From NCBI GenBank assembly GCA_949775045.1, contig OX459102.1:11612201-11676200 (forward strand): a stretch of 64,000 bases of DNA, given 5' to 3'. Made by a program: the position numbers and the translations under genes. Positions 18,501 to 64,000 of the stretch are shown in pieces (the first letter of the stretch is position 1; every line of letters starts with the position of its first letter). The notes under the pieces were generated by a model. That model had not been told where the DNA came from and did not search any database. It worked only from the letters and a program-made list of their open reading frames with translations. This stretch comes from Metridium senile (taxonomy: Eukaryota; Cnidaria; Anthozoa; Actiniaria; Metridiidae).

Positions 18501-18509
18501 CTTGATTTG

Positions 18510-30165: not shown

Positions 30166-30539
30166 TTATAGTTGCCCTTAAGGTTTGTAGATCTATATAC
30201 AGAAGAAAAATGAATAAATAAATGATATATGAACTTGAACTTGGATTATAATAAACAATTTTGCAAATATTTAAAGACACCATGGACTTTGACGTTTTTA
30301 CAATTGAAAAATATATGTAAAATATAATATAATTCAAGAGGTAGATTGAATATTATTTATATATCTGCAACTACGTGAGGTGATGGAAGATACAACTTAA
30401 TTAGGATAGGATGCAGAGACTGAATGAATGAATGCCGGAAGGGAACCCAATATAATGAGCTCGTTGGTGTATATAGGGTTATTGAATTAATTCATTGATG
30501 CTCCATGATTTAACGTAACTTAGCATTTGGCATTATGTT

Positions 30540-31825: not shown

Positions 31826-31829
31826 ATTC

Positions 31830-32335
31830 TATTTCATGCGGTCATTTGTTCGAAATCCTGTTTTGACTTGTTCCAGCTTATGCAGTGATAACTACAGGTT
31901 TCCTTTTATTTGTACGAACTCCTTAAATAATTTATTGATTTCTGACTGTTGATCATTGTGATAAAAAGTTCGATTTCATGCGATCATTTGTTCGAATTCC
32001 TGTTTTGACTTGTTCCATCTTTTGAAGTGGTACCTACAGCTTTTCTTTTATTTGTCATAAACGTACGAATTCTTTAATTTATTGATTTTTCCGCTTTGTG
32101 TTGGTCAGCGTGATTTTATTTCATGCGATCATTTGTTCGAAATCCTGTTCTGACTTGTTCCAGCTTATGTACTATATACCTACAGTTTTTCTTTTATTTC
32201 TACGAACTTTTTAATTATTTTAATGATTTCTGTCTGTTTATCATTGTGATAAAAAGTTCGATTTCATGCGATCGCGATTCGTTCGAAATCCTGTTCTGAC
32301 TTGTCCCAGCTTTTGCACTCTACCTGCAGTTTTAT
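31830..32335. repeat. Four diverged copies, about 140 bp each
   Basis: TTTCATGCGATCATTTGTTCG plus CCTGTTTTGACTTGTTCC recurs near 31835, 31973, 32120 and 32262. Confidence 0.8.
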
Positions 32336-33077
32336 TTTCTATTTGTCAGTCATACACTGTAAGAGAACAATAGATGAACGATCGAGTATTGTGAACTCTT
32401 GCGCTATCAGCAGATGATCACGATATAATCTGTCCCGTTTTGGGAATCTTTGAGATCTTTTGATAAGCTAGCATTGGGGAAACCTTGGCCTTAATTATAG
32501 TAATTTAAAGGGTAAAGAGTATGCTAAATACATGATCACTGAGACAAATTTTGTAAGATGGCGATCAGTGTAGTGCGTAGGTTTTGAGTAAGCAAGGTTG
32601 ATTCTTGAATTGATTCAAGAATTTTGCTCGAAAGTATCCTCTGATCTTTTGTGTTTGTATTCTAGACAATGGGAGTTTTCACTGTTAGTTTAAAAGTTTT
32701 CATAGCTAGGTTTTTGCAGAGAATATTCGAGGTTTTCAAACTGACTTACCCAGATTCACGCTCAAGGTGGTCGTTGATCAATTTTTGGGTGAAAAAACAT
32801 GTTATAGCCCCTAAATAGACAGATCTTGAGAACGTGCAAACTCGTTCAGCTTATTTCTAAGTAGATTAATTTTTTTTAAGTGGCAAATTGTTTTTTGACA
32901 CACATCAGCGAAATTTGCGCGCACATACATAATCGCACTAGCAACTCGTCGCAATTTTGGCCAGAAAAATTGAGAAACCGCCACGAGAGAGATTCTGTTC
33001 TTCGGCCATGTTGGTCCGTTTATTCGAGGCTTAATATTTACTATATGTTTATACTATTTTATTTTCTGTGCCGCCAG
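32336..33077 (+). other. Region immediately upstream of the first HBP1 coding exon
   Basis: Non-coding. It includes GTAAGATGGCGATCAGTG (32552-32569, a YY1-like start-site motif) and a less AT-rich patch at 32880-33010. A promoter here is possible, but no good donor precedes the 33077 acceptor. Confidence 0.3.
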
Positions 33078-33238
33078 GGTTTGCTAGCTGACACAGGAAA
33101 TGTACCCAGAGCATCGTAAACCTTTCAAGTGTTCAAATTGTCCAAAGTCTTTCAAGAGTACGAACGGACTGAAATACCACAACGAAAAAAAACACTCTGA
33201 CGAAGAATACATGAAGATGAGTGGCATTTATACTGACG
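33078..33238 (+). CDS. HBP1: HBP1 first coding exon: C2H2 zinc finger
   Basis: The acceptor is GCCGCCAG (ends 33077), followed by a 22-bp leader with an in-frame TAG, then ATG at 33100. It encodes a finger C-x2-C-x12-H-x4-H (C11, C14, H27, H32) with KSTNGLKYH, which resembles JAZF1-type fingers. It ends in phase 1 at GACG|GTAATA and joins exactly to the next exon (G|TG, valine). Confidence 0.85.
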
Positions 33239-39200: not shown

Positions 39201-42200
39201 GATTCGAACCGAGACCTTCTGCATTGCTGTATCCGCGCTTTAAGCCATTATGCTACCCAGGCAACCGATGGAAAACTTGCAACAAAAACACGTTTAATGT
39301 CATCAAGTTCATTAGCATTCCTCTAAATAGAATTGATGAAATTATAACTAATTAGAGTTTGGTAAGCCTATTGTTATTATATTCAAAGAGACAAGAAACC
39401 GCTGATTATTATGCAACAAAGAGAACAATAATGGGACAGGCTATTGAATGATTATTACATTTTCATTGGCTGATAATATTATAACTAATTAAGCGGCGTT
39501 GACACGAGCAATTTTTCCTTGACAAGTATCCTTGACAATTTTCATTGCTCGTGTAGACGATCAGCAAGATTTCCTTGACAATTTTATATTGACAAGGTTT
39601 CCTTGCTCGTGTAGATGATGAACAAGTTTTCCTTGACAAGTTTAAGTTGTGCCCACAATGCCTTGCATTCAGCAGAGTACTAACATAATATTGGTTCCAG
39701 TCCCTTGTCGAGTAAAAAACAAAATGATTTATAGTTAAGTCCGATCAACTTGAAGTTTTACATGTGAAAAGTAAACACCAAAAGAAAAATTTTCTTCTTT
39801 TCACTTTTACAAATGTTACGATTTTTGGCGGGAAAATGACGTCACCAATTTTAGTGGGAAATTGAAATAGAGGGTTATGCAAAATTTTAAAATGCGCATT
39901 TGAAAGAACTCATTGAGATATGTTCAAAACCGAAGAGATAACAGTCAAAGTCAAATTTAATCAAAATATATGATTTTTGAAGTTTAGAAATGTTTTCTAT
40001 TTTACATTCAAAAAATTATAACTTTAGATTAAATTTGACTTTGACTATTATCTCTTCGGTTTTGAACGTATCTCAATGAGTTCTTTCAAATGCGCATTTT
40101 AAAATTTTGCATTACCCTCATTTTAGATTTTCCTCTAAAATTGATGACGTTATTTTCCCGCCAAAAATCGTAACATTTGTAAAAGTGAAAAGAAGAATTA
40201 TTTTCTTTGGGTGTGTACTCTTCACATATAAAATTTGAAGTTGATCGGACCTAACTATAAAAAGTTATTCAAAATCACGCTTAAAAACGCCGATTTCAGT
40301 ACACTGCCAGCCCAGCGTGAAAGTTTGGTAAGCCTATTTTTATTATATTCAAAAACACAAGAAACCGCCGATTACTGTGCAAGAGAGAAAACAATGGGGC
40401 AGGGTGGTGAATAGTAACTATATACGATAGTCACTTCGGCCGGCTAGCAATATTAGATATATTGCAGTCAGCTTCGGGCTGCGCCCTCAGCTGACTGCAA
40501 TATATCTAATATTGCTGCCGGCCTCAGTAACTATCTAATACATAACTGTGTAAATCGATGCTTCCACAGTTATTCACTGCAAAAACGACTGAGTAGTGGT
40601 TACTCAAATGGACTAAGTACATCCAATATCTAATATTTATTATCATTTATTTAGGTTTGACTTCACGGATTTGGACTCCGATGCAGCTTTAACATTGAGC
40701 AGCATGGCAAAGGTATACATGTACCATTATTTGTATTATTTTCGGCTTGCCTCTTAGCATGAACTCTTTTCAAATATTTAAATATTCATCTCCACATGCC
40801 TTTTTGATGGCATTTTTTGTTATTTAGTGTGTGTGTGTGTGCATATACGACGTAGACGTTTTCAAAATTACTTTCTCTGAACGCAATATCGGTATGATTA
40901 TTCATTGACTCTGTCTCAAGCCACGTGTATGTAGTCTGTATCGTTAGGCACATGTATTATATCGCTTCCCGCTTCCCACAATCTCTTTCGGTCATGACTT
41001 GATCTATGATCTATGATTAATGTTTTGCACAAGACTACCTTACTTCAATCTGGTGTATACGATTACTCACATTGATGCATTGATCTTAACAACAGGATCG
41101 ACAGGAGCACAAATCCCGTAAATCAAAGCTGTTCTCGATCCAGCCCCTCGTCGCTGGCCCGGCCTCTGGGATACAGCAACTAAACAAACGACCTATGAAT
41201 GCGTTCATGCTGTTTGCGAAAAAATACCGACTAAAGATAACCAAGGCACACCCTGGGAAAGACAACAGGTAACCAGAGAAAGTTAAACGAACTGAGTTTT
41301 CTAGTGGGTGAGAGGGAAAGGGAATAAGGATAAAGGAAGGAATGAATGAAGGAGGGAAAAATTTAAATCTAGGAAGGCCAGAAGAGAGGAACCAGAGAAA
41401 GGAAGGTGAGAAATAGGCAAGGAAACAAAAGGAAGTAACGAAGGAAAGAAGGAGGGAGGGAAGGGAACAAAAGGAAAGAAGGGAACAAAAGGAAAGAAGG
41501 GAACAAAAGGAAGGAAGGAAGGAAGGAAGGAAGGAAAGAGAGATGAAAGAAAAGGAGAATGGATGAAGGAATAGTAAATCAAGTAGGTGATTGTTTAATT
41601 CAATTTGTGTGATTCTATAAATATGTGAACGAAGGTGGAGCACCTTAAAGAGTTACCCTGTGTAAACAGAACCTACTTTAAATAGCTCTCGGGAGACATG
41701 TCGAGCGCTTAGTAGGTTCTGTTTACGCAGGCTACTCAAAGAGTCTGCTCTAAAGTTATCTAAATATTTGATGTGTTTGTGTTATTCAGAGCTATAAGTG
41801 TAATACTTGGAGATAGGTGGAAGTCAATAAAACCAGATGAAAAAAGCCAGTATATACTGGAGGCCAAGAAGTTGGCAGAAGAACATAAGAAAGTAAATCC
41901 AGACTGCTGGAAACGCAAACGAGGCGCAGGACAGGTGATGAAGGTAATGGAGGGATGCATGGCTAATTGGCCTTTTTCAAAACAGTAAAGGACTGGGTAC
42001 TAGTTTCCCTAATTAATGTAATTAAGAAATGATTATATAGAGCACATCAAGATATGTAAAATTCCTGAGTTTGGTTGCATTTGGTTGTATTCTGACCAAG
42101 ATACAGACTCATAAAAATGCCTAAAATTAGAAGGAAATGTATGGTTTGGAAAGACGCCTGTCATTCCAATCTATACATTCCTTTGTAATTTTGGGCAGTT

Positions 42201-44439: not shown

Positions 44440-44644
44440 ACTGCAAAAAAGGCTGAGTAGATACAACTCAGTGTATTGAGTTAATCATGCATTCAGGATG
44501 ACACTTTATAGTGAGTAAACCCAACTCATTATTAAGAGTGTACATAAATGTAGATGTGCAATTGATTACTCACTATAAAGTGTCATCCTGAATGCATGAT
44601 TAACTCAATATACTGAGTTGTATCTACTCAGCCGTTTTTGCAGT
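44440..44644. mobile_element. MITE, family A (second copy)
   Basis: Same ends (ACTGCAAAAA...GGCTGAGTAG) and same inner GTTAATCATGCATTCAGG as 33779-34044, with a shorter centre. Confidence 0.9.
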
Positions 44645-45151: not shown

Positions 45152-46469
45152 ATCTATAGCCCATGCATTTTGATCAAAAATGACCTATTTTGACGCAATT
45201 GTGTGGCTATAGCCCATGCATTTTGATCAAAAATGACCTATTGTGACGCAATTGTGTGGGTTGTAGTCCATGCATTTTGATCAAAAATGACCTATTTTGA
45301 CACAATTGTGTGGGTTAAAGTCCATGCATTTTGGTCGAAAATGATCAACTTTGACGCATTTTGGTGGGCTATAGTCCATGCATTTTGGTCGAAAATGACC
45401 TATTTTGACGCGTTTTGGTGGGCTCTAGTCTGCATTTTGATCGAAAATGACCTATTTTGACGCATTTTGGTGGGCTATAGTCCATGCATTTTGATCAAAA
45501 ATGACCTATTTTGATATATTTTGGTGGTTTTATAGCCCATCAAAATGCGTCAAAATAGATCATTTTTGACCAAAATGCATGGACTATAGCCCACCAAAAT
45601 GCGTCAAAATAGGCCATTTTCGATCAAAATGCATGGACTATAGCCCACCAAAATGCGTCAAAATAGGTCATTTTCGACCAAAATGCATGGACTATAGCCC
45701 ACCAAAATACGTCATTTTTGACCAAACTGCATGGACTATAGCCCACCAAAATGCGTCAAAATAGATCATTTTTGACCAAAATGCATGGACTATAGCCCAC
45801 CAAAAATGCGTCAAAATAGGTCATTTTCGATCAAAATGCATGGACTATAGCCCACCAAAATGCGTCAAAATACGTCATTTTTGACCAAAGTGCATGGACG
45901 ATAGCCCACCAAAATGCGTCAAAATAGGTCATTTTCGACAAAAATGCATGGACTATAGCCCACCAAAATGCGTCAAAATAGGCCATTTTCAATCAAAATG
46001 CATGGACTAAAGCCCACCAAAATGCGTCAAAATAGGTCATTTTCGATCAAAATGCATGGACTATAGCCCACCAAAATGCGTCAAAATAGGTCATTTTCGA
46101 CCAAAATGCATGGACTATAGCCCACCAAAATACGTCATTTTTGACCAAACTGCATGGACTCTAGCCCACCATAATGCGTCAAAATAGGTCATTTTCGACC
46201 AAAAGGCATGGACTATAGCCCACCAAAATAGGTCATTTTCGATCAAAATGCATGTCTATAGCCCACCAAAATGCGACAAAATACGTCATTTTCGACCAAA
46301 ATGCATGGACTATAGCCCACCAAAATACGTCAAAATACGTCATTTTCGACCAAAATTCAAGGACTATAGCCCACCAAAGTACGTCAAAATAGGTCATTTT
46401 CGATCAAAATGCATCGACTATATCCCACCAAATAGCGTCAAAATACTTCATTTTTGACCAAACTGCATG
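45152..46469. repeat. 54-bp minisatellite, left block with orientation switch
   Basis: Units contain GCATTTTGATCGAAAATGAC and CTATTTTGACGCATTTTGG plus GGGCTATAGTCC. The first six to seven units run in one orientation (45152 to about 45535) and the remainder to the gap in the opposite one. Because 54 is divisible by three, most frames are open (repeating MDYSPPKCVKIGHFRPKC). Confidence 0.95.
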
Positions 46470-46669: not shown

Positions 46670-48262
46670 CATTTTGGTGGGCTATAGTCCATGCATTTTG
46701 ATCGAAAATGACCTATTCTGACGCATTTTCGTGTGCTATAGCCCATGCATTTTGGTCAAAAATGACCTATTTTGACGCATTTTGGTGGGCTATAGCCCAT
46801 GCGTTTCGGTCAAAAATGACCTATTTTGACGCATTTTGGTGGTCTATTGTCCATGCATTTTTTCGAAAATGACCTATTTTGACGCATTTTCGTGGGCTGT
46901 AGCCCATGCAGTTTGGTCAAAAATGACGTATTTTGACGCTATTTGGTGGGATATAGTCCATGCATTTTGATCGAAAATGACCAATTTTGACGTATTTTGG
47001 TGGGCTATAGTCCATTCATTTTGGTCGAAAATGACCTATTTTGACGTATTTTGGTGGGCTATAGTCCTTGAATTTTGGTCGAAAATGACGTATTTTGACG
47101 TATTTTGGTGGGCTATAGTCCATGCATTTTGGTCGAAAATGACCTATTTTGACGCATTTTGGTGGGCTAAAGTCCAGGCATTTTCATGCAAATGACGTAT
47201 TTTGACGGATTTTGGTGGGCTATTGTCCATGCATTTTGATCGAAAATGACCTATTTTGACGCATTTTTGTGGGCTGTAGTCCATGCATTTTGGTCGAAAA
47301 TGACCTATTTTGACGCATTTTCGCGGGCTATAGTCCATTCATTTTGATCGAAAATGACCTATTCTGACGCATTTTGGTGGTCTATTGTCCATTGCATTTT
47401 TTCGAAAATGACCTATTTTGACGCATTTTCGTGGGCTGTAGCCCATGCAGTTTGGTCAAAAATGACGTATTTTGACGCTATTTGGTGGGATTAGTCCATG
47501 CATTTTGATCGAAAATGACCAATTTTGACGTATTTTGGTGGGCTATAGTCCATTCATTTTGGTCGAAAATGACGTATTTTGACGTATTTTGGTGGGCTAT
47601 AGTCCTTGAATTTTGGTCGAAATGACGTATTTTGACGTATTTTGGTGGGCTATAGTCCATGCATTTTGGTCGAAAATGACCTATTTTGACGCATTTTGGT
47701 GGGCTAAAGTCCAGGCATTTTCATGCAAAATGACGTATTTTGACGGATTTTGGTGGGCTATTGTCCATGCATTTTGATCGAAAATGACCTATTTTGACGC
47801 ATTTTTGTGGGCTGTAGTCCATGCATTTTGGTCGAAAATGACCTATTTTGACGCATTTTCGCGGGCTATAGTCCATGCATTTTGATCGAAAATGACCTAT
47901 TCTGACGCATTTTGGTGGTCTATTGTCCATGCATTTTTTCGAAAATGACCTATTTTGACGCATTTTCGTGGGCTGTAGCCCATGCAGTTTGGTCAAAAAT
48001 GACGTATTTTGACGCTATTTGGTGGGATTAGTCCATGCATTTTGATCGAAAATGACCAATTTTGACGTATTTTGGTGGGCTATAGTCCATTCATTTTGGT
48101 CGAAAATGACCTATTTTGACGTATTTTGGTGGGCTATAGTCCTTGAATTTTGGTCGAAAATGACGTATTTTGACGTATTTTGGTGGGCTATAGTCCATGC
48201 ATTTTTGTCGAAAATGACCTATTTTGACGCATTTTGGTGGGCTAAAGTCCAGGCATTTTGAT
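46670..48262. repeat. 54-bp minisatellite with higher-order repeat of about 540 bp
   Basis: All units share one orientation. Diagnostic variant units (TTTTTTCGAAAATGACC near 46857, 47398 and 47935; AGTCCAGGCATTTTCATGC near 47171 and 47709) recur every ten units or so, showing a ten-unit higher-order repeat. Confidence 0.93.
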
Positions 48263-48269
48263 GCAAAAT
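48263..48269 (+). repeat. Left target-site duplication GCAAAAT
   Basis: GCAAAAT immediately precedes the left end (CATGGGCAG) and is repeated at 62543-62549 after the right end. Satellite sequence near 47724-47735 shows the unoccupied site with a single GCAAAAT. Confidence 0.9.
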
Positions 48270-48496
48270 CATGGGCAGCAGAGTATCGTTCGCATTTGTA
48301 TTCGCTTGTAATCTCCGTTTATTTATAGCTACCAACGGTCGTTTATTTGTTTGCTTTGTTATTTTATTGACCCTTCGTCATATTTCTAGCTCCTATTTCA
48401 ATCTCGTGATGTTAGTCTATTTGGTATTAAAAGCGATCGTATGTCACTCGGTTACTAATCGGTAACTTCTTTAACTGCCCCCGAAGGTATATAAGA

Positions 48497-49322
48497 TACC
48501 AGGGTACGCAGCTAGCCCTAATCCTATTGTTCTCTATCTGCTCAAATCCGTACTAGGTAAACGTCACTGCTATGGACAGTGATGATAGATTGGCAAGTTC
48601 GGACTCTGTTCGCTTGCTATCCGAAAACACAACTATTCGTTCGGTCGATAATCAGCACTACCCGAAGTGAAGTACCGGTATTCATAACATTAAACCTGCG
48701 TTATAAAATTAATCATTCATTTGAGAACGGTTTCATGATTTTAAGTAAAAGAGATTTAGAAAACGTATTTAAAATAAAAACTAACGCAACGTTTAAAAAA
48801 CTAACGTACGGTGATTTACTATTTTATAATCAGTCGCTACTTTCAAGCTGAAGAAAAGTTTCAAGTAAACAAATAAGTCGCTACTAGCGTTCAAACCGTA
48901 ATGAGTTGCCCATCCTCGGGAACCATCAACTTGTCTCAATCTGTATTTTGGTACATTGGTGAAAACCTTCTTTATAAACTTCCCCAAATCGGTCTTTCGA
49001 CAGCAGTGGTTGCCACCTTGCATTCACATGACAATAAAATTCTTATGCATTGCTCGTTTCTATTAAAGCACAAGGCTTATAATAAAAAATTATTGTGAAT
49101 GCGTTCTCCATGTATCAAAATAACGGCCGAACTAAATTCAAAAACTAATACGGTAACGCAATCTTTATTCCTAGTCAAACGGAGTCGGATAGCAAGCGAA
49201 CAGGGTCCGAACTTGCCAATCTATCATCACTGTCCATAGCAGTGACGTTTACCTGTTTACCTAGTACGGATTTGAGCAGATAGAGAACAATAGGATTAGG
49301 GCTAGCTGCGTACCCTGGTATC
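48497..49322. mobile_element. TIR element nested in the left arm only
   Basis: Inverted ends of about 130-140 bp (CCAGGGTACGCAGCTAGCCC, CAGTGATGATAGATTGGC) bound about 820 bp that are missing from the mirrored position of the right arm (near 62310). The interior has short frames (for example 48579-48851 +, 48793-49023 -) without recognisable domains, so it is a non-autonomous element. Confidence 0.82.
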
Positions 49323-49468
49323 CACTTAAGAAAGCAGTGCTATAGACGTCTATTATCATGATCATATGATAAAAAATGACGTAAAACACGTCGTGTTTCA
49401 TCATGAGCCTGCAGACAAAGTTGGCGGCAATAAACAGTAAAATATGTGCAAGATCATAATTTTACCTC

Positions 49469-49864
49469 TCAAGATTCAAAGTGGCTTAATAATCTCACCA
49501 AAACTTCAGGATAGAACGCAATCCGTTCGAAGGACAAAGTTATGACTTGAGTTTTTAAAGAAATTATTCGAGAGTATTTCTGAGTGCACAAACAAATGGA
49601 TTTATCAGTAAAGTTCTGCAAGACTAGAGATCCAGTTGGCGTTTTAGTTCGTGTAGATCGATGCATGCTCGAGGTTTGAACTTTTTTTAGGAGCTGCGAA
49701 GAGATTTCAGCTATTTGGGCCAGATAATGGGTTCTGATGTTGAACATCACGAAGCTACCATCGATCCACTGGTATGTCGAGTCATTCAAAATGAACTTAG
49801 GCGCTCTGCCGCTTGCTGGACCGTTGTACTTAATAGACAGACAAAGCACAAAGTGTCTTTCCAT
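49469..49864 (-). CDS. Hypothetical ORF in left arm (131 codons)
   Basis: The frame is open for 131 codons and its 122-codon mirror copy in the right arm (61796-62164) is almost identical from KYNG to the shared stop. It reads outward, toward the left end of the element. Features seen: KFILNDSTYQW, FVMFNIRTHYLAQ, a serine/threonine-rich middle and a hydrophobic-aromatic C-terminus (FYPEVLVRLLSHF). I recognise no family. Conservation of the frame may reflect recent arm homogenisation rather than function. Confidence 0.4.
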   Translation of the reverse strand: MERHFVLCLSIKYNGPASGRAPKFILNDSTYQWIDGSFVMFNIRTHYLAQIAEISSQLLKKVQTSSMHRSTRTKTPTGSLVLQNFTDKSICLCTQKYSRIISLKTQVITLSFERIAFYPEVLVRLLSHFES

Positions 49865-51339
49865 CTTATGGGACCGTATTTTAATATATATTGTAAACTT
49901 TGTTTACAGCATGGACTATATTGTTCTTACAATCATCTAATTATCATACTAGTTGTTTCAAGAAAAACCAAGCTTAGAATTTCTTATATGGGACCGTTAA
50001 TATGGAACAAATAAAAAAAATTACAAGTCAATTGCAAAACTATTAATAGATTCAAAAAAATAATTAAAGAAGAACAATTATTAAAATATATCAATGAGAA
50101 TTAAAATATATTTGAAATTATGTAACTCGATTCATTTTAAGTGAAATAGAACATATTTGTTACAATTCATAAATCTTATTACAAATCATAGAGTACAATA
50201 ATCAATTTACTTATGATTATATCAATCGATAATTTGAATATTTTATCCACAATTTGTATTTTAAATCAATGTAGTTTTATATACTCTATAAGCATATGCT
50301 TTTTCTAGACTACTATTCTTAATCATTTTTACACTTACCAAATTATTGTAATTTTAGAAATATTATTTGTAACAATGACTGAGAATGAATAAAAAAAAGC
50401 ATTAAAATGTTTTTCGCTCTACTAGTCCACGCAGATTTATTAGAAGGGATAGAACAGCATTAAGGGACATTCACTAGAGTAGAACTGTAATTTAGAAAGC
50501 TAAGTTTATATAGGGAGGAAAACTGCAACCAAAATGCTAATTTATATGGGTAATAAAGAGGAGACTGTAATAGTGGGCATATGTACATGATTTATTTGTC
50601 TGGGATTGAAATTGAGCCATATGTGTATCTAGAGGAGAGCAGATAATATTGAAAATTGAAATAAAACAAAAAGGCACTTATAGTGCGGTATGGAAAGAAT
50701 AATCATAACAACAGTAATATAACAGTAATAGCATTTTACAATGTCTCAAAGAGGGCAGTGTATTTATTTAAATTCTATATCAATGGATGTATTAAGTAAG
50801 AAGATTGGGTTATTTCATAATTGTAATTGTAATATTTATTGGTGTGACAGGAACGTGTTTAAGTATTGATGATAGCAAATAGGGAAGAGATGTAGGTTAG
50901 AAAAGTGCATGTGAATTGATAATGGGTAATAAAGCATTTAAACTTGAACAAGTGGTTAATGTGAATAATATGGAGCAAGCGGGTTTGAGCTCAAGCAGGA
51001 TGCACGCACCTGGTAACAGCTATAATGGAATTGTATATTATGATGAAAATTATATAAAAGGAAGGTGAAAAGAGATATATTACAAAAAACAGACGTTCAT
51101 CATCAGGTGTTGAGACGGCTGGTAGGGATAAACCAAACATGTTTCAGAACAAGAGCTAGACATCAATTGCTTTTATCTCATTATCTATTATATGTCAAAA
51201 GTTATTGAGAATTAAATGTACCGGGAAATGAGAATTGAGATGTCCCCTTTTTCTTCCATTGCATGACTCTGCCAGTATTGCTTCATCCTTTGATGTAAAA
51301 TCAGTTGCCATTACAGTGTGAATAAAAATATGGTAGGCA
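49865..51339. repeat. Left arm, non-coding segment
   Basis: Inverted counterpart of 59440-61730 with scattered substitutions. AT-rich, with no ORF. Confidence 0.8.
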
Positions 51340-54300
51340 GATCAAAAACCTCATTTCTGTTCTTTTTATTTCATTTACCTTAATGTCTAAACAGTTATTG
51401 AGAATTTAGTGTACTGGGAAATGAAAAATGAGATGGAATGTACAAAGGTTGTTGTCAACTTTATTTTCCATTTCATAACTCTACCAAAAGTGCTTCATCC
51501 TTAGATGTCAAATAAGTTGCCATTAAAAGCTTATAGAAACTCTTACCTATTTTGACAACAATATACAGTCACTGACATTGGAAGTTTGTTGAAAATCATG
51601 AGCTGGTCTATAAAGTATTTTTGTAAAAAGACCCTGTAAGGAGTCATATTCTAACATTTCCTGCATGGTACTATCACACCGGTTCAAAAGATGAACTTTG
51701 TTAGCACATTGACCACACCCTGCACTCACTAGGCCAAAAAAGCAGTGCATGCCGTCAATATTAAAATTGTTTCAAAATTAGACCAAAATTATATTTTCTG
51801 AAAGCTCTTGCTCAAAAAACTCATTTCTGTTCTTTTAATTTCATTTACCTTAATGTGTAAGTTATTGAGAATTTAGTGCACTGGGAAATGAAAAATGAGA
51901 TGGAATATACAAAGTTTGTTTTCAACTTTATTTTCCATTTCATAACTCTACCAAAAGTGCTTCATCCTTAAATGTCAAATAAGTTGCCATTAAAAGCTTA
52001 TAGAAACTCATACCTATTTTGACCAACAATATAAAATGTACATGCAGTCACTGTGGAAGTTTGTTGAAAATCATGAACAGGTCTATAACGTATTTTTGTA
52101 AATAGACCCTGCGAGGAGTCATTCTAACATTTCCTGCATCCAGTACTATCACACCGGTTAAAAAGATGAAATTTGTTTGCACTTGACCACACCCTGCACT
52201 CACTAGGCCAAAAAAGCAGTGCATGCCGTCAATATTAAAATTGTTTCAAAATTAGACCAAAGTTATATTTTCTGAAAGCTTTTGCTCAAAAAACTAATTT
52301 CTGTTCTTTTTATTTCATTTACCTTAATGTCTAAACAGTTATGAGAATTTAGTGTACTGGGAAATGAAAAATGAGATGGAATGTACAAAGTTGGTTGTGC
52401 ACTTTTTTTTCCATTTCATAACTCTACCAAAAGTGCTTCATGCTTAGATGTCAAATAAGTTGCTATTAAAAGCTTATAGAAACTCTTACCTATTTTGACA
52501 ACAATATACAGTCACTGACATTGGAAGTTTGTTGAAAATCATCAACTGGTCTATAAAGTATTTTTGTAAAAAGACCCTGTAAGGAGTCATATTCTAACAT
52601 TTCCTGCATGGTACTATCACACCGGTTCAAAAGATGAACTTTGTTAGCACATTGACCACACCCTGCACTCACTAGGCCAAAAAAGCAGTGCATGCCGTCA
52701 ATATTAAAATTGTTTCAAAATTAGACCAAAGTTATATTTTCTGAAAGCTTTTGCTCAAAAAACTAATTTCTGTTCTTTTTATTTCATTTACCTTAATGTC
52801 TAAACAGTTATTGAGAATTTAGTGTACTGGGAAATGAAAAATGAGATGGAATGTACAAAGGTTGTTGTCAACTTTATTTTCCATTTCATAACTCTACCAA
52901 AAGTGCTTCATCCTTAGATGTCAAATAAGTTGCCATTAAAAGCTTATAGAAACTCTTACCTATTTTGACAACAATATACAGTCACTGACATTGGAAGTTT
53001 GTTGAAAATCATGAGCTGGTCTATAAAGTATTTTTGTAAAAAGACCCTGCGAGGAGTCATATTCTATAACATTTCCTGCATGATACTATCACACCGGTTC
53101 AAAAGATGAACTTTGTTAGCACATTGACCACACCCTGCACTCACTAGGCCAAAAAAGCAGTGCATGCCGTCAATATTAAAATTGTTTCAAAATTAGACCA
53201 AAATTATATTTTCTGAAAGCTCTTGCTCAAAAAACTCATTTCTGTTCTTTTAATTTCATTTACCTTAATGTGTAAGTTATTGAGAATTTAGTGCACTGGG
53301 AAATGAAAAATGAGATGGAATATACAAAGTTTGTTTTCAACTTTATTTTCCATTTCATAACTCTACCAAAAGTGCTTCATCCTTAAATGTCAAATAAGTT
53401 GCCATTAAAAGCTTATAGAAACTCATACCTATTTTGACCAACAATATAAAATGTACATGCAGTCACTGTGGAAGTTTGTTGAAAATCATGAACAGGTCTA
53501 TAACATATTTTTGTAAATAGACCCTGCGAGGAGTCATTCTAACATTTCCTGCATGCAGTACTATCACACCGGTTAAAAAGATGAAATTTGTTTGCACTTG
53601 ACCACACCCTGCACTCACTAGGCCAAAAAAGCAGTGCATGCCGTCAATATTAAAATTGTTTCAAAATTAGACCAAAGTTACATTTTCTGAAAGCTCTTGC
53701 TCAAAAAACTCATTTCTGTTCTTTTTATTTCATTTACCTTAATGTGTAAACATTTATTGAGAATTTAGTGTACTGGGAAATGAAAAATGAGATGGAATGT
53801 AAAAAGGTTGTTGTCAACTTTATTTTCCATTTCATAACTCTATACCAAAAGTGCTTCATCCTTAGATGTCAAATAAGTTGCTATTAAAAGCTTATAGAAA
53901 CTCTTACCTATTTTGACAACAATATACAGTCACTGACATTGGAAGTTTGTTGAAAATCATCAACTGGTCTATAAAGTATTTTTGTAAAAAGACCCTGTAA
54001 GGAGTCATATTCTAACATTTCCTGCATGGTACTATCACACCGGTTCAAAAGATGAACTTTGTTAGCACATTGACCACACCCTGCACTCACTAGGCCAAAA
54101 AAGCAGTGCATGCCGTCAATATTAAAATTGTTTCAAAATTAGACCAAAGTTATATTTTCTGAAAGCTTTTGCTCAAAAAACTAATTTCTGTTCTTTTTAT
54201 TTCATTTACCTTAATGTCTAAACAGTTATTGAGAATTTAGTGTACTGGGAAATGAAAAATGAGATGGAATGTACAAAGGTTGTTGTCAACTTTATTTTCC

Positions 54301-55155
54301 ATTTCATAACTCTACCAAAAGTGCTTCATCCTTAGATGTCAAATAAGTTGCCATTAAAAGCTTATAGAAACTCTTACCTATTTTGACAACAATATACAGT
54401 CACTGACATTGGAAGTTTGTTGAAAATCATGAGCTGGTCTATAAAGTATTTTTGTAAAAAGACCCTGCGAGGAGTCATATTCTATAACATTTCCTGCATG
54501 ATACTATCACACCGGTTCAAAAGATGAACTTTGTTAGCACATTGACCACACCCTGCACTCACTAGGCCAAAAAAGCAGTGCATGCCGTCAAAATTAAAAT
54601 TGTTTCAAAGTTAGACCAAAATTATATTTTCTGAAAGCTCTTGCTCAAAAAACTCATTTCTGTTCTTTTAATTTCATTTACCTTAATGTGTAATTAAGTT
54701 ATTGAGAATTTAGTGCACTGGGAAATGAAAAATGAGATGGAATATACAAAGTTTGTTTTCAACTTTATTTTCCATTTCATAACTCTACCAAAAGTGCTTC
54801 ATCCTTAAATGTCAAATAAGTTGCAATTAAAAGCTTATAGAAACTCATACCTATTTTGACCAACAATATAAAATGTACATGCAGTCACTGTGGAAGTTTG
54901 TTGAAAATCATGAACAGGTCTATAACGTATTTTTGTAAATAGACCCTGCGAGGAGTCATTCTAACATTTCCTGCATGGTACTATCACACCGGTTCAAAAG
55001 ATGAAATTTGTTTGCACTTGACCACACCCTGCACTCACTAGGTCAAAAAAACAGTGCATTTCGTCAATATCAAATTGTTTCAAAATTAGACCAAAGTTAC
55101 ATTTTCTGAAAGCTCTTGCTCAAAAAACTCATTTCTGTTCTTTTTATTTCATTTC
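51340..55155 (-). repeat. Array of about 470-bp units, minus orientation (about 8 copies)
   Basis: On the minus strand each unit carries ATG(CACTGCTTTTTTGG) and a 67-codon frame. It is intact at 51547-51750, 52490-52693 and 53908-54111 and broken by small indels in the other units. The encoded peptide has Cys-rich SAGCGQCANKVHLLNRC and EMLEYDSLQGLFTKILYRP. The frame stops at TAG directly followed by GTAAGAG, a good splice-donor match. Variant types recur every three units (about 1,417 bp). Confidence 0.9.
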
Positions 55156-58100
55156 ATTTAATAAAAAGAACAGAAATGAGTTTTTTGAGCAAGAGCTTTC
55201 AGAAAATGTAACTTTGGTCTAATTTTGAAACAATTTGATATTGACGAAATGCACTGTTTTTTTTACCTAGTGAGTGCAGGGTGTGGTCAAGTGCAAACAA
55301 ATTTCATCTTTTGAACCGGTGTGATAGTACCATGGAGGAAATGTTAGAATGACTCCTCGCAGGGTCTATATTTACAAAAATACCTTATAGACCTAATCAT
55401 GATTTTCAACAAACTTCCACAGTGATTGTTCATTTTATATTGTTGGTCAAAATAGGTATGAGTTTCTATAAGCTTTTAATGGCAACTTATTTGACATTTA
55501 AGGATGAAGCACTTTTGGTAGAGTTATGAAATGGAAAAGAAAGTTGAAAACAAACTTTGTACATTCCATCTCATTTTTCATTTCCCAGTACACTAAATTC
55601 TCAATAACTGTTTAATCATTAAGGTAATTGACATAAAAAGAACAGAAATGAGTTTTTTGAGCAACTCTAGCTTTCAGGAAATGTAACTTTGGTCTAATTT
55701 GGAAACAATTTTAATATTGACGGCATGCATTGCTTTTTTGGCAAAGTGAGTGCAGGGTGTGGTCAATGTGCTAACAAAGTTCATCTTTTGAACCGGTATG
55801 ATAGTACCATGCAGGAAATGTTAGAATATGACTCCTGCCGGGTCTTTTTGCAAAAATACTTTATAGACCAGTTCATGATTTTCAACAAACTTCCAATGCC
55901 AGTGACTGTATATTGTTTGTCAAAAGAGGTAAGAGTTTCTATAAGCTTTTAATGGCAACTTATTTGACATCTAAGGATGAAGCACTTTTGGTAGAGTTAT
56001 GAAATGGAAAAAAAAGTTGACAAACTTTGTACATTCCATCTCATTTTTTATTTCCCAGTACACTAAATTCTCAATAACTGTTGAGACATTAAGGTAAATG
56101 AAATAAAAAGAACAGAAATGAGTTTTTTGAGCAAGAGCTTTCAGAAAATGTAACTTTGGTCTAATTTTGAAACAATTTTAATATTGACCGCATGCACTGC
56201 TTTTTTGGCCTAGTGAGTGCAGGGTGTGGTCAATGTGCTAACAAAGTTCATCTTTTGAACCGGTGTGATAGCTAGTACCATGCAGGAAATGTTAGAATAT
56301 GACTCCTTACAGGGTCTTTTTACAAAAATACTTTATAGATCAGCTCATGATTTTCAACAAACTTCCAATGTCAGTGACTGTATATTGTTGTCAAAATAGG
56401 TAAGAGTTTCTATTAGCTTTTAATGGCAACTTATTTGACATCTAAGGATAAAGTACTTTTGGTAGAGTTATGAAATGGAAAAAAAAGTGCACAACCAACT
56501 TTGTACATTCCATCTCATTTTTCATTCCCAGTACACTAAATTCCCATAACTGTTTAGACATTAAGGTAAATGAAATAAAAAGAACAGAAATGAGTTTTTT
56601 GAGCAAGAGCTTTCAGAAAATGTAACTTTGGTCTAATTTTGAAACAATTTTAATATTGACAGCATGCACTGCTTTTTTGGCCTAGTGAGTGCAGGGTGTG
56701 GTCAATGTGCTAACAAAGTTCATTTTTTGAACCGGTGTGATAGTACCATGCAGGAAATGTTAGAATATGACTCCTTGCAGGGTCTTTTTACAAAAAAACT
56801 TTATAGACCTGTTCAAGATTTTCAACAAACTTCCACAGTGACTGCATGTACATTTTATATTGTTGGTCAAAATAGGTATGAGTTTCTATAAACTTTTAAT
56901 TGCAACTTATTTGACATTTAAGGATGAAGCACTTTTGGTAGAGTTATAAAATGGAAAATAAAGTTGAAAACAAACTTTGTACATTCCATCTCGTTTTTCA
57001 TTTCCCAGTACACTAAATTCTCAATAACTGTTTAGACATTAAGGTAAATGAAATAAAAAGAGCAGAAATGAGTTTTTTGAGCAAGAGCTTTCAGAAAATG
57101 TAACTTTGGTCTAATTTTGAAACAATTTTAATATTGACGGCATGCACTGCTTTTTTGGCCTAGTGAGTGCAGGGTGTGGTCAATGTGCTAACAAAGTTCA
57201 TCTTTTGAACCGGTGTGATAGCTAGTACCATGCAGGAAATGTTAGAATATGACTCCTTATAGGGTCTTTTTACAAAAATACTTTATAGACCAGTTCATGA
57301 TTTTCAACAAACTTCCAATGTCAGTGACTGTATATTGTTGTCAAAATAGGTAAGAGTTTCTATAAGCTTTTAATGGCAACTTATTTGACATCTAAGGATA
57401 AAGTACTTTTGGTAGAGTTATGAAATGGAAAAAAAAGTGCACAACCAACTTTGTACATTCCATCTCATTTTTCATTCCCAGTACACTAAATTCTCATAAC
57501 TGTTTAGACATTAAGGTAAATGAAATAAAAAGAACAGAAATGAGTTTTTTGAGCAAGAGCTTTCAGAAAATATAATTTTGGTCTAATTTTGAAACAATTT
57601 TAATATTGACGGCATGCACTGCTTTTTTGGCCTAGTGAGTGCAGGGTGTGGTCAATGTGCTAACAAAGTTCATCTTTTGAACCGGTGTGATAGTACCATG
57701 CAGGAAATGTTAGAATATGACTCCTTACAGGGTCTTTTTACAAAAATACTTTATAGACCTGTTCATGATTTTCAACAAACTTCCACAGTGACTGCATGTA
57801 CATTTTATATTGTTGGTCAAAATAGGTATGAGTTTCTATAAGCTTTTAATGGCAACTTATTTGACATTTAAGGATAAAGCACTTTTGGTAGAGTTATGAA
57901 ATGGAAAATAAAGTTGAAAACAAACTTTGTACATTCCATCTCATTTTTCATTTTCCAGTACCCTAAATTCTCAATAACTGTTGAGACATTAAGGTAAATG
58001 TAATAAAAAGAACAGAAATGAGTTTTTTGAGCAAGAGCTTTCAGAAAATGTAACTTTGGTCTAATTTGGAAACAATTTTAATATTGACGGCATGCATTGC

Positions 58101-59435
58101 TTTTTTGGCAAAGTGAGTGCAGGGTGTGGTCAATGTGCTAACAAAGTTCATCTTTTGAACCGGTATGATAGTACCATGCAGGAAATGTTAGAATATGACT
58201 CCTGCCGGGTCTTTTTGCAAAAATACTTTATAGACCAGTTCATGATTTTCAACAAACTTCCAATGCCAGTGACTGTATATTGTTTGTCAAAAGAGGTAAG
58301 AGTTTCTATAAGCTTTTAATGGCAACTTATTTGACATCTAAGGATGAAGCACTTTTGGTAGAGTTATGAAATGGAAAAAAAAGTTGACAAACTTTGTACA
58401 TTCCATCTCATTTTTCATTTCCCAGTACACTAAATTCTCAATAACTGTTGAGACATTAAGGTAAATGAAATAAAAAGAACAGAAATGAGTTTTTTGAGCA
58501 AGAGCTTTCAGAAAATGTAACTTTGGTCTAATTTTGAAACAATTTTAATATTGACGGCATGCACTGCTTTTTTGGCCTAGTGAGTGCAGGGTGTGGTCAA
58601 TGTGCTAACAAAGTTCATCTTTTGAACCGGTGTGATAGCTAGTACCATGCAGGAAATGTTAGAATATGACTCCTTACAGGGTCTTTTTACAAAAATACTT
58701 TATAGATCAGCTCATGATTTTCAACAAACTTCCAATGTCAGTGACTGTATATTGTTGTCAAAATAGGTAAGAGTTTCTATTAGCTTTTAATGGCAACTTA
58801 TTTGACATCTAAGGATAAAGTACTTTTGGTAGAGTTATGAAATGGAAAAAAAAGTGCACAACCAACTTTGTACATTCCATCTCATTTTTCATTCCCAGTA
58901 CACTAAATTCCCATAACTGTTTAGACATTAAGGTAAATGAAATAAAAAGAACAGAAATGAGTTTTTTGAGCAAGAGCTTTCAGAAAATATAATTTTGGTC
59001 TAATTTTGAAACAATTTTAATATTGACGGCATGCACTGCTTTTTTGGCCTAGTGAGTGCAGGGTGTGGTCAATGTGCTAACAAAGTTCATCTTTTGAACC
59101 GGTGTGATAGTACCATGCAGGAAATGTTAGAATATGACTCCTCACAGGGTCTTTTTACAAAAATACTTTATAGACCAGTTCATGATTTTCAACAAACTTC
59201 CAATGTCAGTGACTGTATATTGTTGTCAAAATAGGTAAGAGTTTCTATAAGCTTTTAATGGCAACTTATTCGACATCTAAGCATGAAGCACTTTTGGTAG
59301 AGTTATGAAATGGAAAATAAAGTTGACAACAACCTTTGTACATTCCATCTCATTTTTCATTTCCCAGTACACTAAATTCTCAATAACTGTTTAGACATTA
59401 AGGTAAATGAAATAAAAAGAACAGAAATGAGGTTT
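55156..59435 (+). repeat. Array of about 470-bp units, plus orientation (about 9 copies)
   Basis: Mirror of the left array. The 67-75-codon frame is intact at 55725-55952, 56664-56891, 57614-57841, 58092-58319 and 59031-59234. It is broken by a GCTA insertion in units near 56190, 57145 and 58560. Two near-identical units (55725 and 58092, with FFGKVSAGC) lie five units apart, so the amplification pattern differs from the left array. Confidence 0.9.
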
Positions 59436-61795
59436 TTGATCTGCCTACCATATTTTTATTCACACTGTAATGGCAACTGATTTTACATCAAAGGATGAAG
59501 CAATACTGGCAGTCATGCAATGGAAGAAAAAGTGGACTTTAAGTTGTGTACATTCCATCTCAATTCTCATTTCGCGATACACTTAATTCTCAATAACTTT
59601 TGACATATAATAGATAATGAGATAAAAGCAATTGATGTCTAGCTCTTGTTCTGAAACATGTTTGGTTTATCCCTACCAGCCGTCTCAACACCTGATGATG
59701 AACGTCTGTTTTTTGTAATATATCTCTTTTCACCTTCCTTTTATATAATTTTCATCATAATATACAATTCCATTATAGCTGTTACCAGGTGCGTGTATCC
59801 TGCTTGAGCTCAAATCCGCTTGCTCCATTATTCACATTAACCACTTGTTCAAGTTTAAATGCTTTATTACCCATTATCAATTCACATGCACTTTCCTAAC
59901 CTACATCTCTTCCCTATTTGCTATCAATACTTAAACACGTTCCTGTCACACCAATAAATCCCTATATTACAATTACAATTATCAAATAACCTAATCTTCT
60001 TAGTTAATACATCCATTGATATAGAATTTAAATAAATACACTGCCCTCTTTGAGACATTGTAAAATGCTATTACTGTTATATTACTGTTGTTATGATTAT
60101 TCTTTCCATACCGCACTAGAAGTGCCTTTTAGTTTTATTTCAATTTTCAATATATTATCTCCTCTCCTCTATATACACATATGGCCCAATTTCAATCCCA
60201 GACAAATAAATCATGTACATATGCCCACTATTACAGTCTCCTCTTTATTACCCATATAAATTAGCATTTTGGTTGCAGTTTTCCTCCCTATATAAACTTG
60301 GCTTTCTAAATTACAGTTCTACTCTAGTGAATGTCCCTTAATGCAGTTCTATCCCTTCTAATAAATCTGTGTGGACTAGTAGCGCGAAAAACATTTTTAT
60401 ATTGTATCTTAGAACATAAAACATTTTCTAACTTACAGCGCAACGCGTAAAAGTATGGTCACTGATAATGTATTCGCATACTTCTGTCTCGCCATCGATC
60501 CAATCAGCGTTGTAGGATTGTGTTATCTTGTCGCTGATTGGATCGATTGCGAGACAGAAGTATGCGAATACATTATCAGTGGCCATACTTTTACGCGTTG
60601 CGCTGTAATTCCATTACACTAGAACACACATATATAGGCATTGGCATCTCGTTTTATTGACAATTATTGAAGATCAAGGTAATGAAAAAAAGTTTACAAG
60701 TTACACAACGTGGTGTACAGAGAGATACCTTTGAGTATCTACTTTAACAAACTAGCCCTATTTATACAATTACATCTCCCTAGAGTATAATTTACACAAT
60801 AATGCCTTAACATAACAGCACACTAGTATTCATTCCATATCGTTAGAAAATACATTAATGCTTTTTTTTATTCATTCTCAGTCATTGTTACAAATAATAT
60901 TTCTAAAATTACAATAATTAGGTAGTGTAAAAATGATTAAGAATAGAAGTCTAGAAAAAGCATGATATGCTTATAGAGTATAGACCCCTGATATAAAACT
61001 ACATTGATTTAAAATACAAATTGTAGATAAAATATTCAAATTATCGATTGGTATAATAATTAGTAAATTGATAATTGCAACCTATGATTTGTAATTAGAT
61101 TTATGAATTGTAACAAATATAATGTTCTATTTCACTTAAAATGAATCGAGTTACATAATTTCAAATATATTTTAATTCTCATTGATATATTTTAATAATA
61201 GTTCTTCTTTAATTATTATTTTTTAATTCTATTAATAGTGTTGCAATGGACTTGTAATTTTTTTTATTTGTTCCATATTAACGGTCGCATATAAGAAATT
61301 GAAAATTGACTAAGCTTAGTTTTTCTTGAAACAGCTAGTATGATAATTAGATGATTGCCTTGTGTTATGACAATGAATTTCAGAGTTTAGTTTAAAAAAT
61401 GGTCTGAATGTTTCAGATAGCTGAGAAGTATTTAAAAGATACATTTATTTAAGGAAGCATATGTTAAGTGTAGTTATGTCTTCTATTTTGAGAATGGACT
61501 CCTAAGAGTAGAAGAGCGGGATAGTGTGAGCATAATATGATAAATTTGTTATAGTTAATCTTATGACTTTTTTTAAGTTATCTGAAGCGTTTCTCAAGCG
61601 TATATTAACTCTAGCCGAAACAACCCTGCAAGTAGATCAATTATAGTACATATAGTAAGAACATTGTAGTCCATGCTGTAAACAAAGTTTACAATATATA
61701 TTAAAATACGGTCCCATAAGATGGAAAGACACTTTGTGCTTTGTTTTGTCGCTCTATAAAATCAAGATAATTAAGGTACTGTCAATAAAAGATTA
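59436..61795. repeat. Right arm, non-coding segment
   Basis: Inverted counterpart of 49865-51339 with about 760-850 extra bases. Two insertions account for most of these: about 60398-60858 and about 61358-61660. Confidence 0.78.
60434..60607. mobile_element. Hairpin MITE nested in the right arm
   Basis: Near-perfect arms of about 75 bp begin TACAGCGCAACGCGTAAAAG and end with the complement. The whole segment is absent from the left arm. Confidence 0.88.
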
Positions 61796-62164
61796 ATGTC
61801 TATTAAATACAACGGTCCAGGCGGCAGAACGCTCAAGTTCATTTTAAATGACTCGACATACCAGTGGAACGATGGTAGCTTCGTGATGTTCAACATCAGA
61901 ACCCATTATCTGGCCCAAATGGCTGAAATCTCTTCGCAGCTCCTAAAAAAAGTTCAAACCTCGAGCATGCATCGATCTACACGAACTAAAACGCCAACTG
62001 GATCTCTAGTCTTGCAGAACTTTACTGATAAATCCATTTGTTTGTGCACTCAGAAATACTCTCGAATAATTTCTTTAAAAACTCAAGTCATAACTTTGTC
62101 CTTCGAACGGATTGCGTTCTATCCTGAAGTTTTGGTGAGATTATTAAGCCACTTTGAATCTTGA
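61796..62164 (+). CDS. Hypothetical ORF in right arm (122 codons)
   Basis: Mirror copy of 49469-49864, reading outward toward the right end. The N-terminus differs (MSIKYNGPGGRTLKF against the longer left version) because of small indels near the start. From LKFILNDSTY onward it has only a few replacements and ends at the same TGA. Family unknown. Confidence 0.4.
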   Translation: MSIKYNGPGGRTLKFILNDSTYQWNDGSFVMFNIRTHYLAQMAEISSQLLKKVQTSSMHRSTRTKTPTGSLVLQNFTDKSICLCTQKYSRIISLKTQVITLSFERIAFYPEVLVRLLSHFES

Positions 62165-62542
62165 GAGGTAAAATTATGATCTTGCACATATTTTACTGTT
62201 TATTGCCGCCAACTTTGTCTGCAGGCTCATGATGAAACACGACGTATTTTACGTCATTTTTTATCATATGATCATGATAATAGACGTCTATAGCACTGCT
62301 ATTATACCTCTGGTATCTTATATACCTTCGGGGGCAGTTAAAGAAGTTACCGATTAGTAACCGAGTGACATACGATCGCTTTTAATACCAAATAGACTAA
62401 CATCACGAGATTGAAATAGGAGCTAGAAATATGACGAAGGGTCAATGGAATAACAAAGCAAACAAATAAACGACCGTTGGTAGCTATAAATAAACGGAGA
62501 TTACAAGCGAATACAAACGCAAACGATACTCTGCTGCCCATG

Positions 62543-62549
62543 GCAAAAT
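62543..62549 (+). repeat. Right target-site duplication GCAAAAT
   Basis: A perfect copy of 48263-48269, followed by GACGTATTTTGACGG. That is the satellite sequence expected to follow GCAAAAT in the empty site at 47724-47750. Confidence 0.9.
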
Positions 62550-64000
62550 GACGTATTTTGACGGATTTTGGTGGGCTATTGTCCATGCATTTTGATCGAA
62601 AATGACCTATTTTGACGCATTTTTGTGGGCTGTAGTCCATGCATTTTAGTCGAAAATGACCTATTTTGACGCATTTTCGTGGGCTATAGTCCATGCATTT
62701 TGATCGAAAATGACCTATTCTGTCGCATTTTCGTGTGCTATAGCCCATGCATTTTGGTCAAAAATGACCTATTTTGACGCATTTTGGTGGGCTATAGCCC
62801 ATGCGTTTTGGTCAAAAATGACCTATTTTGACGCATTTTGTTGGGCCATAGCCCATGCAGTTTGGTCAAAAATGAACTATTTTGGTGGGCTATAGTCCAT
62901 GCATTTTGGTCGAAAATGACGTATTTTGTCGCATTTTGGTGGGCTATAGTCCATGCATTTTGATCGAAAATGACCTATTTTGGTGGGCTATAGTCGATGC
63001 ATTTTGGTCGAAAATGATATTTCGATCAAAATGCATGGACTACAGTCCACCAAAATGCGTCAAAATAGGTCATTTTCGATCAAAATGCATGGACAATAGC
63101 CCACAAAAATGCGTCAAAATAGGTCATTTTCGATCAAAATGCCTGGACTATAGCCCACCAAAATGCGTCAAAATAGGTCATTTTCGATCAAAATGCATGG
63201 ACTATAGCCCACCGAAATAGGTCATTTTTGATCAAAATGCATGGACTATAGCCCACCAAAATACGTCATTTTTGACCAAACTGCATTGACTCTAACCCAC
63301 CAAAATGCGTCAAAATAGGTCATTTTCGACCAAAAGGCATGGACTATAGCCTACCAAAATACGTCATTTTCGATCAAAATGCATGGACTATAGCCCACCA
63401 AAATACGTCAAAATTGGTCATTTTCGATCAAAATGCATGGACTATATCCCACCAAAATACGTCAAAATAGGTCATTTTCGATCAGAATGCATGGACTATA
63501 GCCCACCAAAATGCGTCAAAATACGTCATTTTTGACCAAAATGCATGGACTATAGCCCAACAAAATTTCGTGGGCTATAGTCCATGCATTTTGGTCGAAA
63601 ATGACCTATTTTGACGCGTTTTGGTGGGCTATAGTCCATGCATTTTGGTCGAAAATGACGTATTTTGACGTATTTTGGTGGGCTATAGTCCATGCATTTT
63701 GTTCGAAAATGACGTATTTTGACGTATTTTGGTGGGCTATAGTCCATGCATTTTGTTCGAAAATGACGTATTTTGACGTATTTTGGTGGGCTATAGTCCA
63801 TGCAGTTTGGTCGAAAATGGCCTATTTTGGTGGGCTATAGTCCATGCATTTTGATCGAAAATGACCTATTTTGGTGGGCTATAGTCCATGCATTTTGGTC
63901 GAAAATGACCTATTTCGTTCAAAATGCATGGACTACAGCCCACCAAAATGCGTCAAAATAATTCATTTTCGATCAAAATGCATGGACAATAGCCCACCAA
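62550..64000. repeat. 54-bp minisatellite, right block with three orientation switches
   Basis: This continues the satellite interrupted by the element. Orientation flips near 63017, 63566 and 63916, with junctions that join two half units (for example GATATTTCGATC, CAAAATTTCGTGG). The window ends inside the array. Confidence 0.94.

What the first reader, a model, noticed from the sequence alone, without database searches (positions are those of the whole stretch)
48270..62542. A 14.3-kb palindromic transposon with exact ends and target duplication
Seen directly: inverted ends starting CATGGGCAG, arms matching over several kb, a perfect 7-bp duplication (GCAAAAT) and a neighbouring copy of the uninterrupted site in the same satellite. 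Known: foldback/TU elements have long inverted repeats, but rarely a clean 14-kb palindrome with internal opposing arrays. Inference: this is an undescribed large non-autonomous (or cryptic autonomous) DNA transposon family.
Basis: partly seen in the sequence, partly recalled or inferred. Interest (0 to 1): 0.87.

Follow-up and report, generated by a model that had tools for sequence, protein, structure and literature searches.

The report
Giant foldback-like DNA transposon insertion
A 14.3-kb mirror-image piece of mobile DNA has jumped cleanly into a satellite repeat; it is built like known foldback-type transposons but is larger than the ones we read about, and we could recognise no gene in it.

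Summary
Window 48270-62542 is an inverted-repeat element. Its ends (CATGGGCAGCAG...) match at 233 of 238 columns, and a perfect 7-bp duplication, GCAAAAT, flanks it. Joining the flanks at one GCAAAAT keeps the 54-bp satellite period and matches an uninterrupted copy 538 bp upstream at 178 of 180 positions; 400 bp match copies at shifts 538 and 1076 at 388 and 387 of 401 columns. This shows insertion of one element with two real ends. Each half is ~3 kb of unique DNA plus a 472-bp array (8 and 9 units), meeting at an 11-bp spacer. Halves are ~95% identical with private blocks, so a simple fold-back artefact is unlikely; a faulty join at the centre alone is not excluded. No transposase was recognised. 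Best reading: a non-autonomous foldback-like cut-and-paste transposon moved in trans, most like Galileo (P superfamily: 7-bp duplications, long arms with tandem repeats). P membership is not established. That it is a family is untested: the own-genome search did not complete in 12 tries. New member of a known kind; moderate interest for size, tiny spacer and separate array expansion in each half.

The parts
46673..48262 (+). left flanking 54-bp satellite block (higher-order period ~538 bp), target DNA
47672..47851 (+). uninterrupted paralogue of the target site (empty site), 178 of 180 identical to the joined flanks
   Evidence: a second paralogue at 46994-47393 matches 387 of 401 columns but lacks one base of the heptamer
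48263..48269 (+). left target-site duplication GCAAAAT
48270..48506 (+). left terminal inverted repeat, starts CATGGGCAGCAGAGTATCG
   Evidence: 233 of 238 columns with the right one
48495..49322 (.). nested inverted repeat present only in the left arm (own arms 48495-48624 and 49185-49322, 129 of 138 columns identical); no direct duplication seen around it by eye
49333..51341 (+). left arm, unique part
51342..55154 (+). left array (TRF limits), 8 units of ~472 bp, period-3 pattern of units
55149..55159 (.). 11-bp centre (TCATTTCATTT) between the two halves
55160..59439 (-). right array (TRF limits), 9 units of ~472 bp in opposite orientation; two of four unit pairs at distance 5 are nearly identical
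59440..62300 (-). right arm, unique part
60398..60856 (.). 459-bp block present only in the right arm, contains a 176-bp palindrome (60433-60608)
61358..61655 (.). 298-bp block present only in the right arm
62305..62542 (-). right terminal inverted repeat
62543..62549 (+). right target-site duplication GCAAAAT
62550..62982 (+). right flanking 54-bp satellite, same strand and phase as the left block

Best explanation
It is one insertion of a non-autonomous, foldback-like (two-arm) cut-and-paste DNA transposon. Shown: matched ends, a 7-bp duplication, an empty site, two long diverged inverted arms each with a tandem array, no recognised transposase. Inferred: a transposase made elsewhere in the genome bound the shared ends, cut the element out and joined it to a 7-bp staggered cut in a satellite unit; host repair filled the gaps to give the two GCAAAAT copies. 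Inferred history: an older element lost its middle or was duplicated head to head, giving two arms about a tiny spacer; a 472-bp stretch of the inner arm then amplified separately in each arm, by unequal exchange or slippage. Most likely source of the transposase: P superfamily, Galileo-like (my estimate ~0.45; hAT or Mutator-like next). The confidence given is for a transposed two-arm foldback-like element, whatever the superfamily.
For: Ends 233 of 238 columns; 7-bp duplication and 54-bp register across the junction; empty-site paralogues 178 of 180, 388 of 401, 387 of 401. Flanks are on the same strand, not mirrored: 200 bp align at 158 of 223 columns directly and 121 of 233 mirrored, so the symmetry stops at the element's ends. 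Arrays have partly separate histories: the five left pairs at distance 3 are 97.9-99.6% alike; on the right R2/R7 is 99.8 and R3/R8 98.3% at distance 5. The outermost pair L1/R1 (99.1%) is the highest cross-arm pair of 72, and the innermost unit R9 is closest to its mirror partner L8 (96.2%). Next to the arrays the arms carry a diverged piece of the unit (79% over 164 columns right; two pieces of 82% left, compared with unit L1), as if the array grew from arm sequence. No Pfam family at E 0.5 in six frames of either unique arm. Galileo has 7-bp TSDs, arms up to 4.7 kb with tandem repeats in its longest D. willistoni copy, and copies without transposase (PMC4168063). Zebrafish Pdre2, of the P superfamily, also starts CAT (CATACCTGTCAAC; PMC10983969 passages).
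Against: No second copy was seen because the genome search did not complete; one insertion does not prove a family. No transposase was found, so the superfamily rests on TSD length, architecture and three end bases. The first 11 bases agree with Pdre2 at only 5 (by eye) and Pdre2 has an 8-bp TSD, so Repbase's rule (same TSD length, at most 1 mismatch in 11; PMC4455052) fails for it. End and 472-bp unit share no more than shuffles do (score 24, shuffle mean 20.8; 32 of 200 shuffles reach it; unit L1). The high similarity of the ends is not special to them: the next arm blocks match at 496 of 507 and 88 of 90, so selection on the ends is not shown. The unit patterns are not clean: on the right R1/R6 (93.6) and R4/R9 (93.8) break the period of 5 and R5 is close to R2 and R7 as well (98.9, 98.7); on the left L1/L6 (98.1) is as close as L3/L6 (97.9). 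The 200 bp beside the spacer are 198 of 200 identical, above the ~95% elsewhere; local conversion would explain it, but so could a faulty join at the centre.
Confidence: 0.86

Rival explanations
1. Assembly artefact: one arm is a false reverse copy (fold-back read or the other haplotype) joined at the centre, or the real element has a middle section that was lost in assembly.
For: Spacer of only 11 bp and 198 of 200 identity beside it; satellite context and a 200-N gap 1.6 kb away.
Against: Arms differ at ~5% and by private blocks of ~826, 298 and 459 bp; array unit orders differ; the right end is followed by satellite in the same strand and phase as the left flank, with the duplication. A fold-back join would run on into mirrored left flank.
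Confidence: 0.1
2. A large inverted duplication (palindrome formed by replication or repair error), not a transposon.
For: Tiny spacer and long arms.
Against: The symmetry ends exactly where a 7-bp duplication begins on both sides, and the target is uninterrupted in paralogues. A duplication of local DNA would carry flanking satellite in mirror orientation.
Confidence: 0.03
3. Nested within the best explanation: the same kind of element, but of another superfamily (Mutator-like as Tm1, or hAT) and moved by such a transposase.
For: Long composite arms with tandem repeats occur in Mutator-like Tm1 (PMC3169594 passages). Repbase's own example command looks for hAT families with a 7-bp TSD (PMC4455052 passages).
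Against: Tm1 TSDs are 8-10 bp, most commonly 9, in 45 of 53 copies; this one is 7 bp. The ends do not begin CAGGG as many hAT ends do (recalled).
Confidence: 0.35

Closest known systems
Galileo copy 112, Drosophila willistoni (P superfamily; PMC4168063: section 6 and passages seen)
   Same: Two very long inverted arms (4246 and 4680 bp), direct tandem repeats in both arms with unequal copy number, fragments of other transposons inside, no transposase segment, identical TSDs; Galileo TSDs are mostly 7 bp.
   Different: 9021 bp against 14,273 bp; ~140-bp against 472-bp repeats; sequence relation not tested (no Galileo sequence compared); the preferred Galileo target there is GTATTAC, here GCAAAAT.
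Tetris, Drosophila virilis (PMC4079207, passages seen)
   Same: Long inverted arms with an outer flanking domain and an array of ~220-bp tandem repeats that shares a 37-bp stretch with the flanking domain; no coding capacity.
   Different: Arms up to 1735 bp, a middle domain between them, TSDs of 8-10 bp; its repeats also form separate satellite-like arrays, not tested here.
Tm1, Meloidogyne (Mutator/Foldback; PMC3169594, passages seen)
   Same: Composite arms with internal tandem repeats; the two arms of one copy are on average 93.15% identical.
   Different: Mostly 9-bp TSDs and repeats of 13-15 bp.
Dada superfamily (PMC3706591, passages seen)
   Same: 6-7 bp TSDs.
   Different: Dada-U6 and Dada-U1 are reported without terminal inverted repeats and target RNA genes; this element has 238-bp ends in a satellite.

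Membership tests
Foldback-like TIR DNA transposons (structural class) | long inverted terminal repeats | tested here: met
Foldback-like TIR DNA transposons (structural class) | tandem repeats inside the arms, varying in number between arms | tested here: met
   8 and 9 units of ~472 bp
Foldback-like TIR DNA transposons (structural class) | target-site duplication and empty site | tested here: met
Foldback-like TIR DNA transposons (structural class) | several dispersed copies with different flanks | not tested
   own-genome search did not complete (12 calls, last)
Galileo / P superfamily | 7-bp (Galileo) or 8-bp (P) duplication | tested here: met
   7 bp; reference lengths from PMC4168063 and PMC7776569 passages
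Galileo / P superfamily | transposase with THAP domain encoded in the element | tested here: not met
   no Pfam hit at E 0.5 in six frames of either unique arm. Copies without transposase are known for Galileo, so this bars a claim of an autonomous P element; the element is not filed as a P-superfamily member here
Galileo / P superfamily | terminal sequence and TSD length shared with a known family (Repbase rule for non-autonomous elements) | tested here: inconclusive
   against zebrafish Pdre2 it fails (5 of 11 bases by eye, TSD 8 bp); Galileo ends were not available as text, so not compared
Dada | no terminal inverted repeats and RNA-gene target (as in Dada-U6, Dada-U1) | tested here: not met
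   238-bp terminal repeats, satellite target, no Rfam match at gathering score in the window
Mutator-like Tm1 foldbacks | 8-10 bp, mostly 9-bp duplication | tested here: not met
   7 bp

The most novel reading that the evidence does not exclude
A foldback lineage in which the whole 14-kb element consists of two arms about an 11-bp spacer, still mobile at that size, whose arms evolve as two separate satellite nurseries (different array patterns left and right) while the unique parts stay alike; the 472-bp arrays may seed satellite elsewhere in the genome.
Probability: 0.3. Interest if true: 0.6.

Novelty: new member of a known kind. Interest (0 to 1): 0.4.

Why it matters
An insertion with a demonstrated empty site suggests that a 14-kb palindrome with almost no spacer can sit in a eukaryote-like genome and probably arrived there whole. 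It would test how large foldback elements can grow, whether arm arrays feed satellite DNA (as proposed for Tetris), and whether P-type foldbacks with 7-bp duplications exist outside the flies in which I saw them described.

Tried and rejected
Hidden transposase: six-frame reads of both unique arms (X at stops) gave no Pfam family at E 0.5. Of the arrays only three frames of 54100-55154 were read through: one chance hit, E 0.1. Short frames gave only hits far below the curated cut-offs: DUF4788 E 0.019 for the recurring array frame, RFX E 0.088 and NodA E 0.17 for a frame in the left-only block. The 131-aa frame kept in both arms (122 aa in the right arm) has no Pfam match at E 1 and no homologue at E 0.01 (2 candidates scored). 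The recurring array frame found no candidate; in unit L1 it is no longer than in 138 of 500 shuffles (the longer frames of R3 and R8 were not tested against shuffles), so it was dropped as a gene.

Secondary transposase sites in the array: the end matches unit L1 no better than shuffles (32 of 200 reach it). The script names that unit a consensus, but it is unit L1.

Other copies: the end pattern has no exact match in viral contigs or genome contigs, nor a unit pattern in viral contigs. These are viral and prokaryote collections, so the nulls say little. Within the window the 12-base end occurs with up to 2 mismatches at the two ends and three times in the satellite (CATGGGCTACAG), taken as satellite similarity. 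Host: no taxon identified. A C2H2-zinc-finger-like frame (33100-33372) scores below every Pfam cut-off (best E 0.0011), and six-frame Pfam of 30000-34999 at E 0.01 gave nothing.

Full report
What is there. Window 48270-62542 (14,273 bp) is bounded by terminal inverted repeats that match at 233 of 238 columns and begin CATGGGCAGCAGAGTATCG. On either side lies GCAAAAT; the next base outward differs, so seven bases are shared. The element sits in a 54-bp satellite with a higher-order period of about 538 bp. Removing the element and one GCAAAAT gives three consecutive 54-bp spacings of the GGTGGGCT landmark, the middle one across the junction. The joined 180 bp match window 47672-47851 at 178 positions without a gap, as the best of 670 shifts tried, the next best being 160 of 180. 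Joined 400-bp flanks match two paralogues, shifted by 538 and 1076 bp, at 388 and 387 of 401 columns; the second lacks one base of the heptamer. In the left satellite block before the duplication GCAAAAT occurs once, at 47725 in the first paralogue, against 21 CGAAAAT, so the duplicated heptamer is a local variant and not the common unit. Random 7-mers from the two flanks agree with frequency 0.00825. This is direct evidence of insertion with a staggered-cut duplication.

Internal anatomy. Unique arm sequence aligns in five BLAST blocks, 2354 of 2475 columns identical (blocks, sum). A global alignment that misplaced the largest gap gave 2094 of 2274. The arms differ by a left-only block of ~826 bp that is itself an inverted repeat (129 of 138 columns), by right-only blocks of 298 and 459 bp and by gaps of 9-51 bp; the 459-bp block holds a 176-bp palindrome. 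Inside the arms are 472-bp arrays in opposite orientation, 8 units left and 9 right. They meet at an 11-bp spacer; identity on either side of it is 198 of 200 over 200 bp, 452 of 476 columns over 470 bp and 3576 of 3818 columns over 3770 bp. The symmetry stops at the element's ends: 200-bp flanks align at 158 of 223 columns directly and 121 of 233 mirrored.

Partly separate evolution of the two arrays. All 17 units were compared. The five left pairs at distance 3 are 97.9-99.6% alike, though L1/L6 (98.1) is as close as L3/L6 (97.9). On the right, two of the four pairs at distance 5 are 98.3 and 99.8%, the other two 93.6 and 93.8%, and R5 is also close to R2 and R7 (98.9, 98.7). L1/R1 (99.1%) is the highest of the 72 cross-arm pairs, and R9 is closest to its mirror partner L8 (96.2%). 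I infer that the arms existed first and that each array was then reshaped on its own. The arms next to the arrays hold a diverged piece of the unit (79% over 164 columns on the right; two pieces of 82% on the left), which suggests that the array grew from arm sequence, as proposed for Tetris (PMC4079207 passages).

Coding content. No Pfam family at E 0.5 in six frames of either unique arm; none at E 1 for the 131-aa and 122-aa frames kept in both arms; no homologue at E 0.01 for the former. The recurring array frame gave one weak Pfam hit far below its cut-off (DUF4788, E 0.019), found no homologue candidate, and in unit L1 is no longer than expected (138 of 500 shuffles). The arrays were not read through in all six frames. 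The element is best called non-autonomous.

Mechanism. Shown: ends, duplication, empty site, two diverged arms. Inferred: cut-and-paste by a transposase supplied in trans. Superfamily: a 7-bp duplication with long, internally repetitive arms and no transposase is the Galileo pattern (P superfamily). Galileo copy 112 of D. willistoni is 9021 bp with 4246- and 4680-bp arms, ~140-bp tandem repeats and fragments of other transposons inside (PMC4168063, section 6; TSD passages). [quoted passage not shown] Against this, I found no sharing between this end and the 472-bp unit beyond shuffles (32 of 200), and the end agrees with zebrafish Pdre2 (sequence) in only 5 of the first 11 bases. P membership therefore stays a lead. 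Mutator-like Tm1 (8-10 bp TSDs) and Dada (Dada-U6 and Dada-U1 without terminal inverted repeats) do not fit; hAT cannot be excluded. The ends are not more alike than the next arm blocks (496 of 507 and 88 of 90), so selection on the ends is not shown.

Artefact question. A fold-back read would give near-identical arms and mirrored flanks. Neither is seen. What remains possible is a faulty join at the centre alone: the 200 bp beside the spacer are more alike (198 of 200) than the rest. Long reads would decide this.

Novelty. In the listings of six literature searches and the passages I opened, I saw no foldback element of this length with so small a spacer. The searches cover open PMC papers only, by keyword, and I opened a small part of what they listed, so this is not proof of absence. 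The kind is known (foldback-like, two-arm, tandem-repeat-bearing transposons); this is a large new member.

Noticed in passing
window 18392-18501: A 110-bp near-perfect palindrome (98%) with TTGATTT on both sides (a 7- to 10-bp duplication depending on where the ends are put): a small MITE-like insertion.
   Followed up: partly
window 33779-34047 and 44440-44644: Two related palindromic repeats (ACTGCAAA...AGGCTGAGTAGATAC ends), 89% alike over 132 bp: probably a MITE family with at least two copies in this window.
   Followed up: no
window 39728-40261: A 534-bp palindrome, 88.5% alike, with only weak 6-bp duplication candidates in A-rich flanks.
   Followed up: no
window 45154-46469 and 63020-63915: The 54-bp satellite switches strand in blocks on both sides of the element; the switches were not explained.
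   Followed up: no
window 54949-55359: The 200 bp on each side of the central spacer are 198 of 200 identical, more than the ~95% of the rest of the arms.
   Followed up: partly
window 33100-33765: A frame with a sub-threshold C2H2 zinc-finger match runs into about twenty copies of a 25-bp minisatellite.
   Followed up: no
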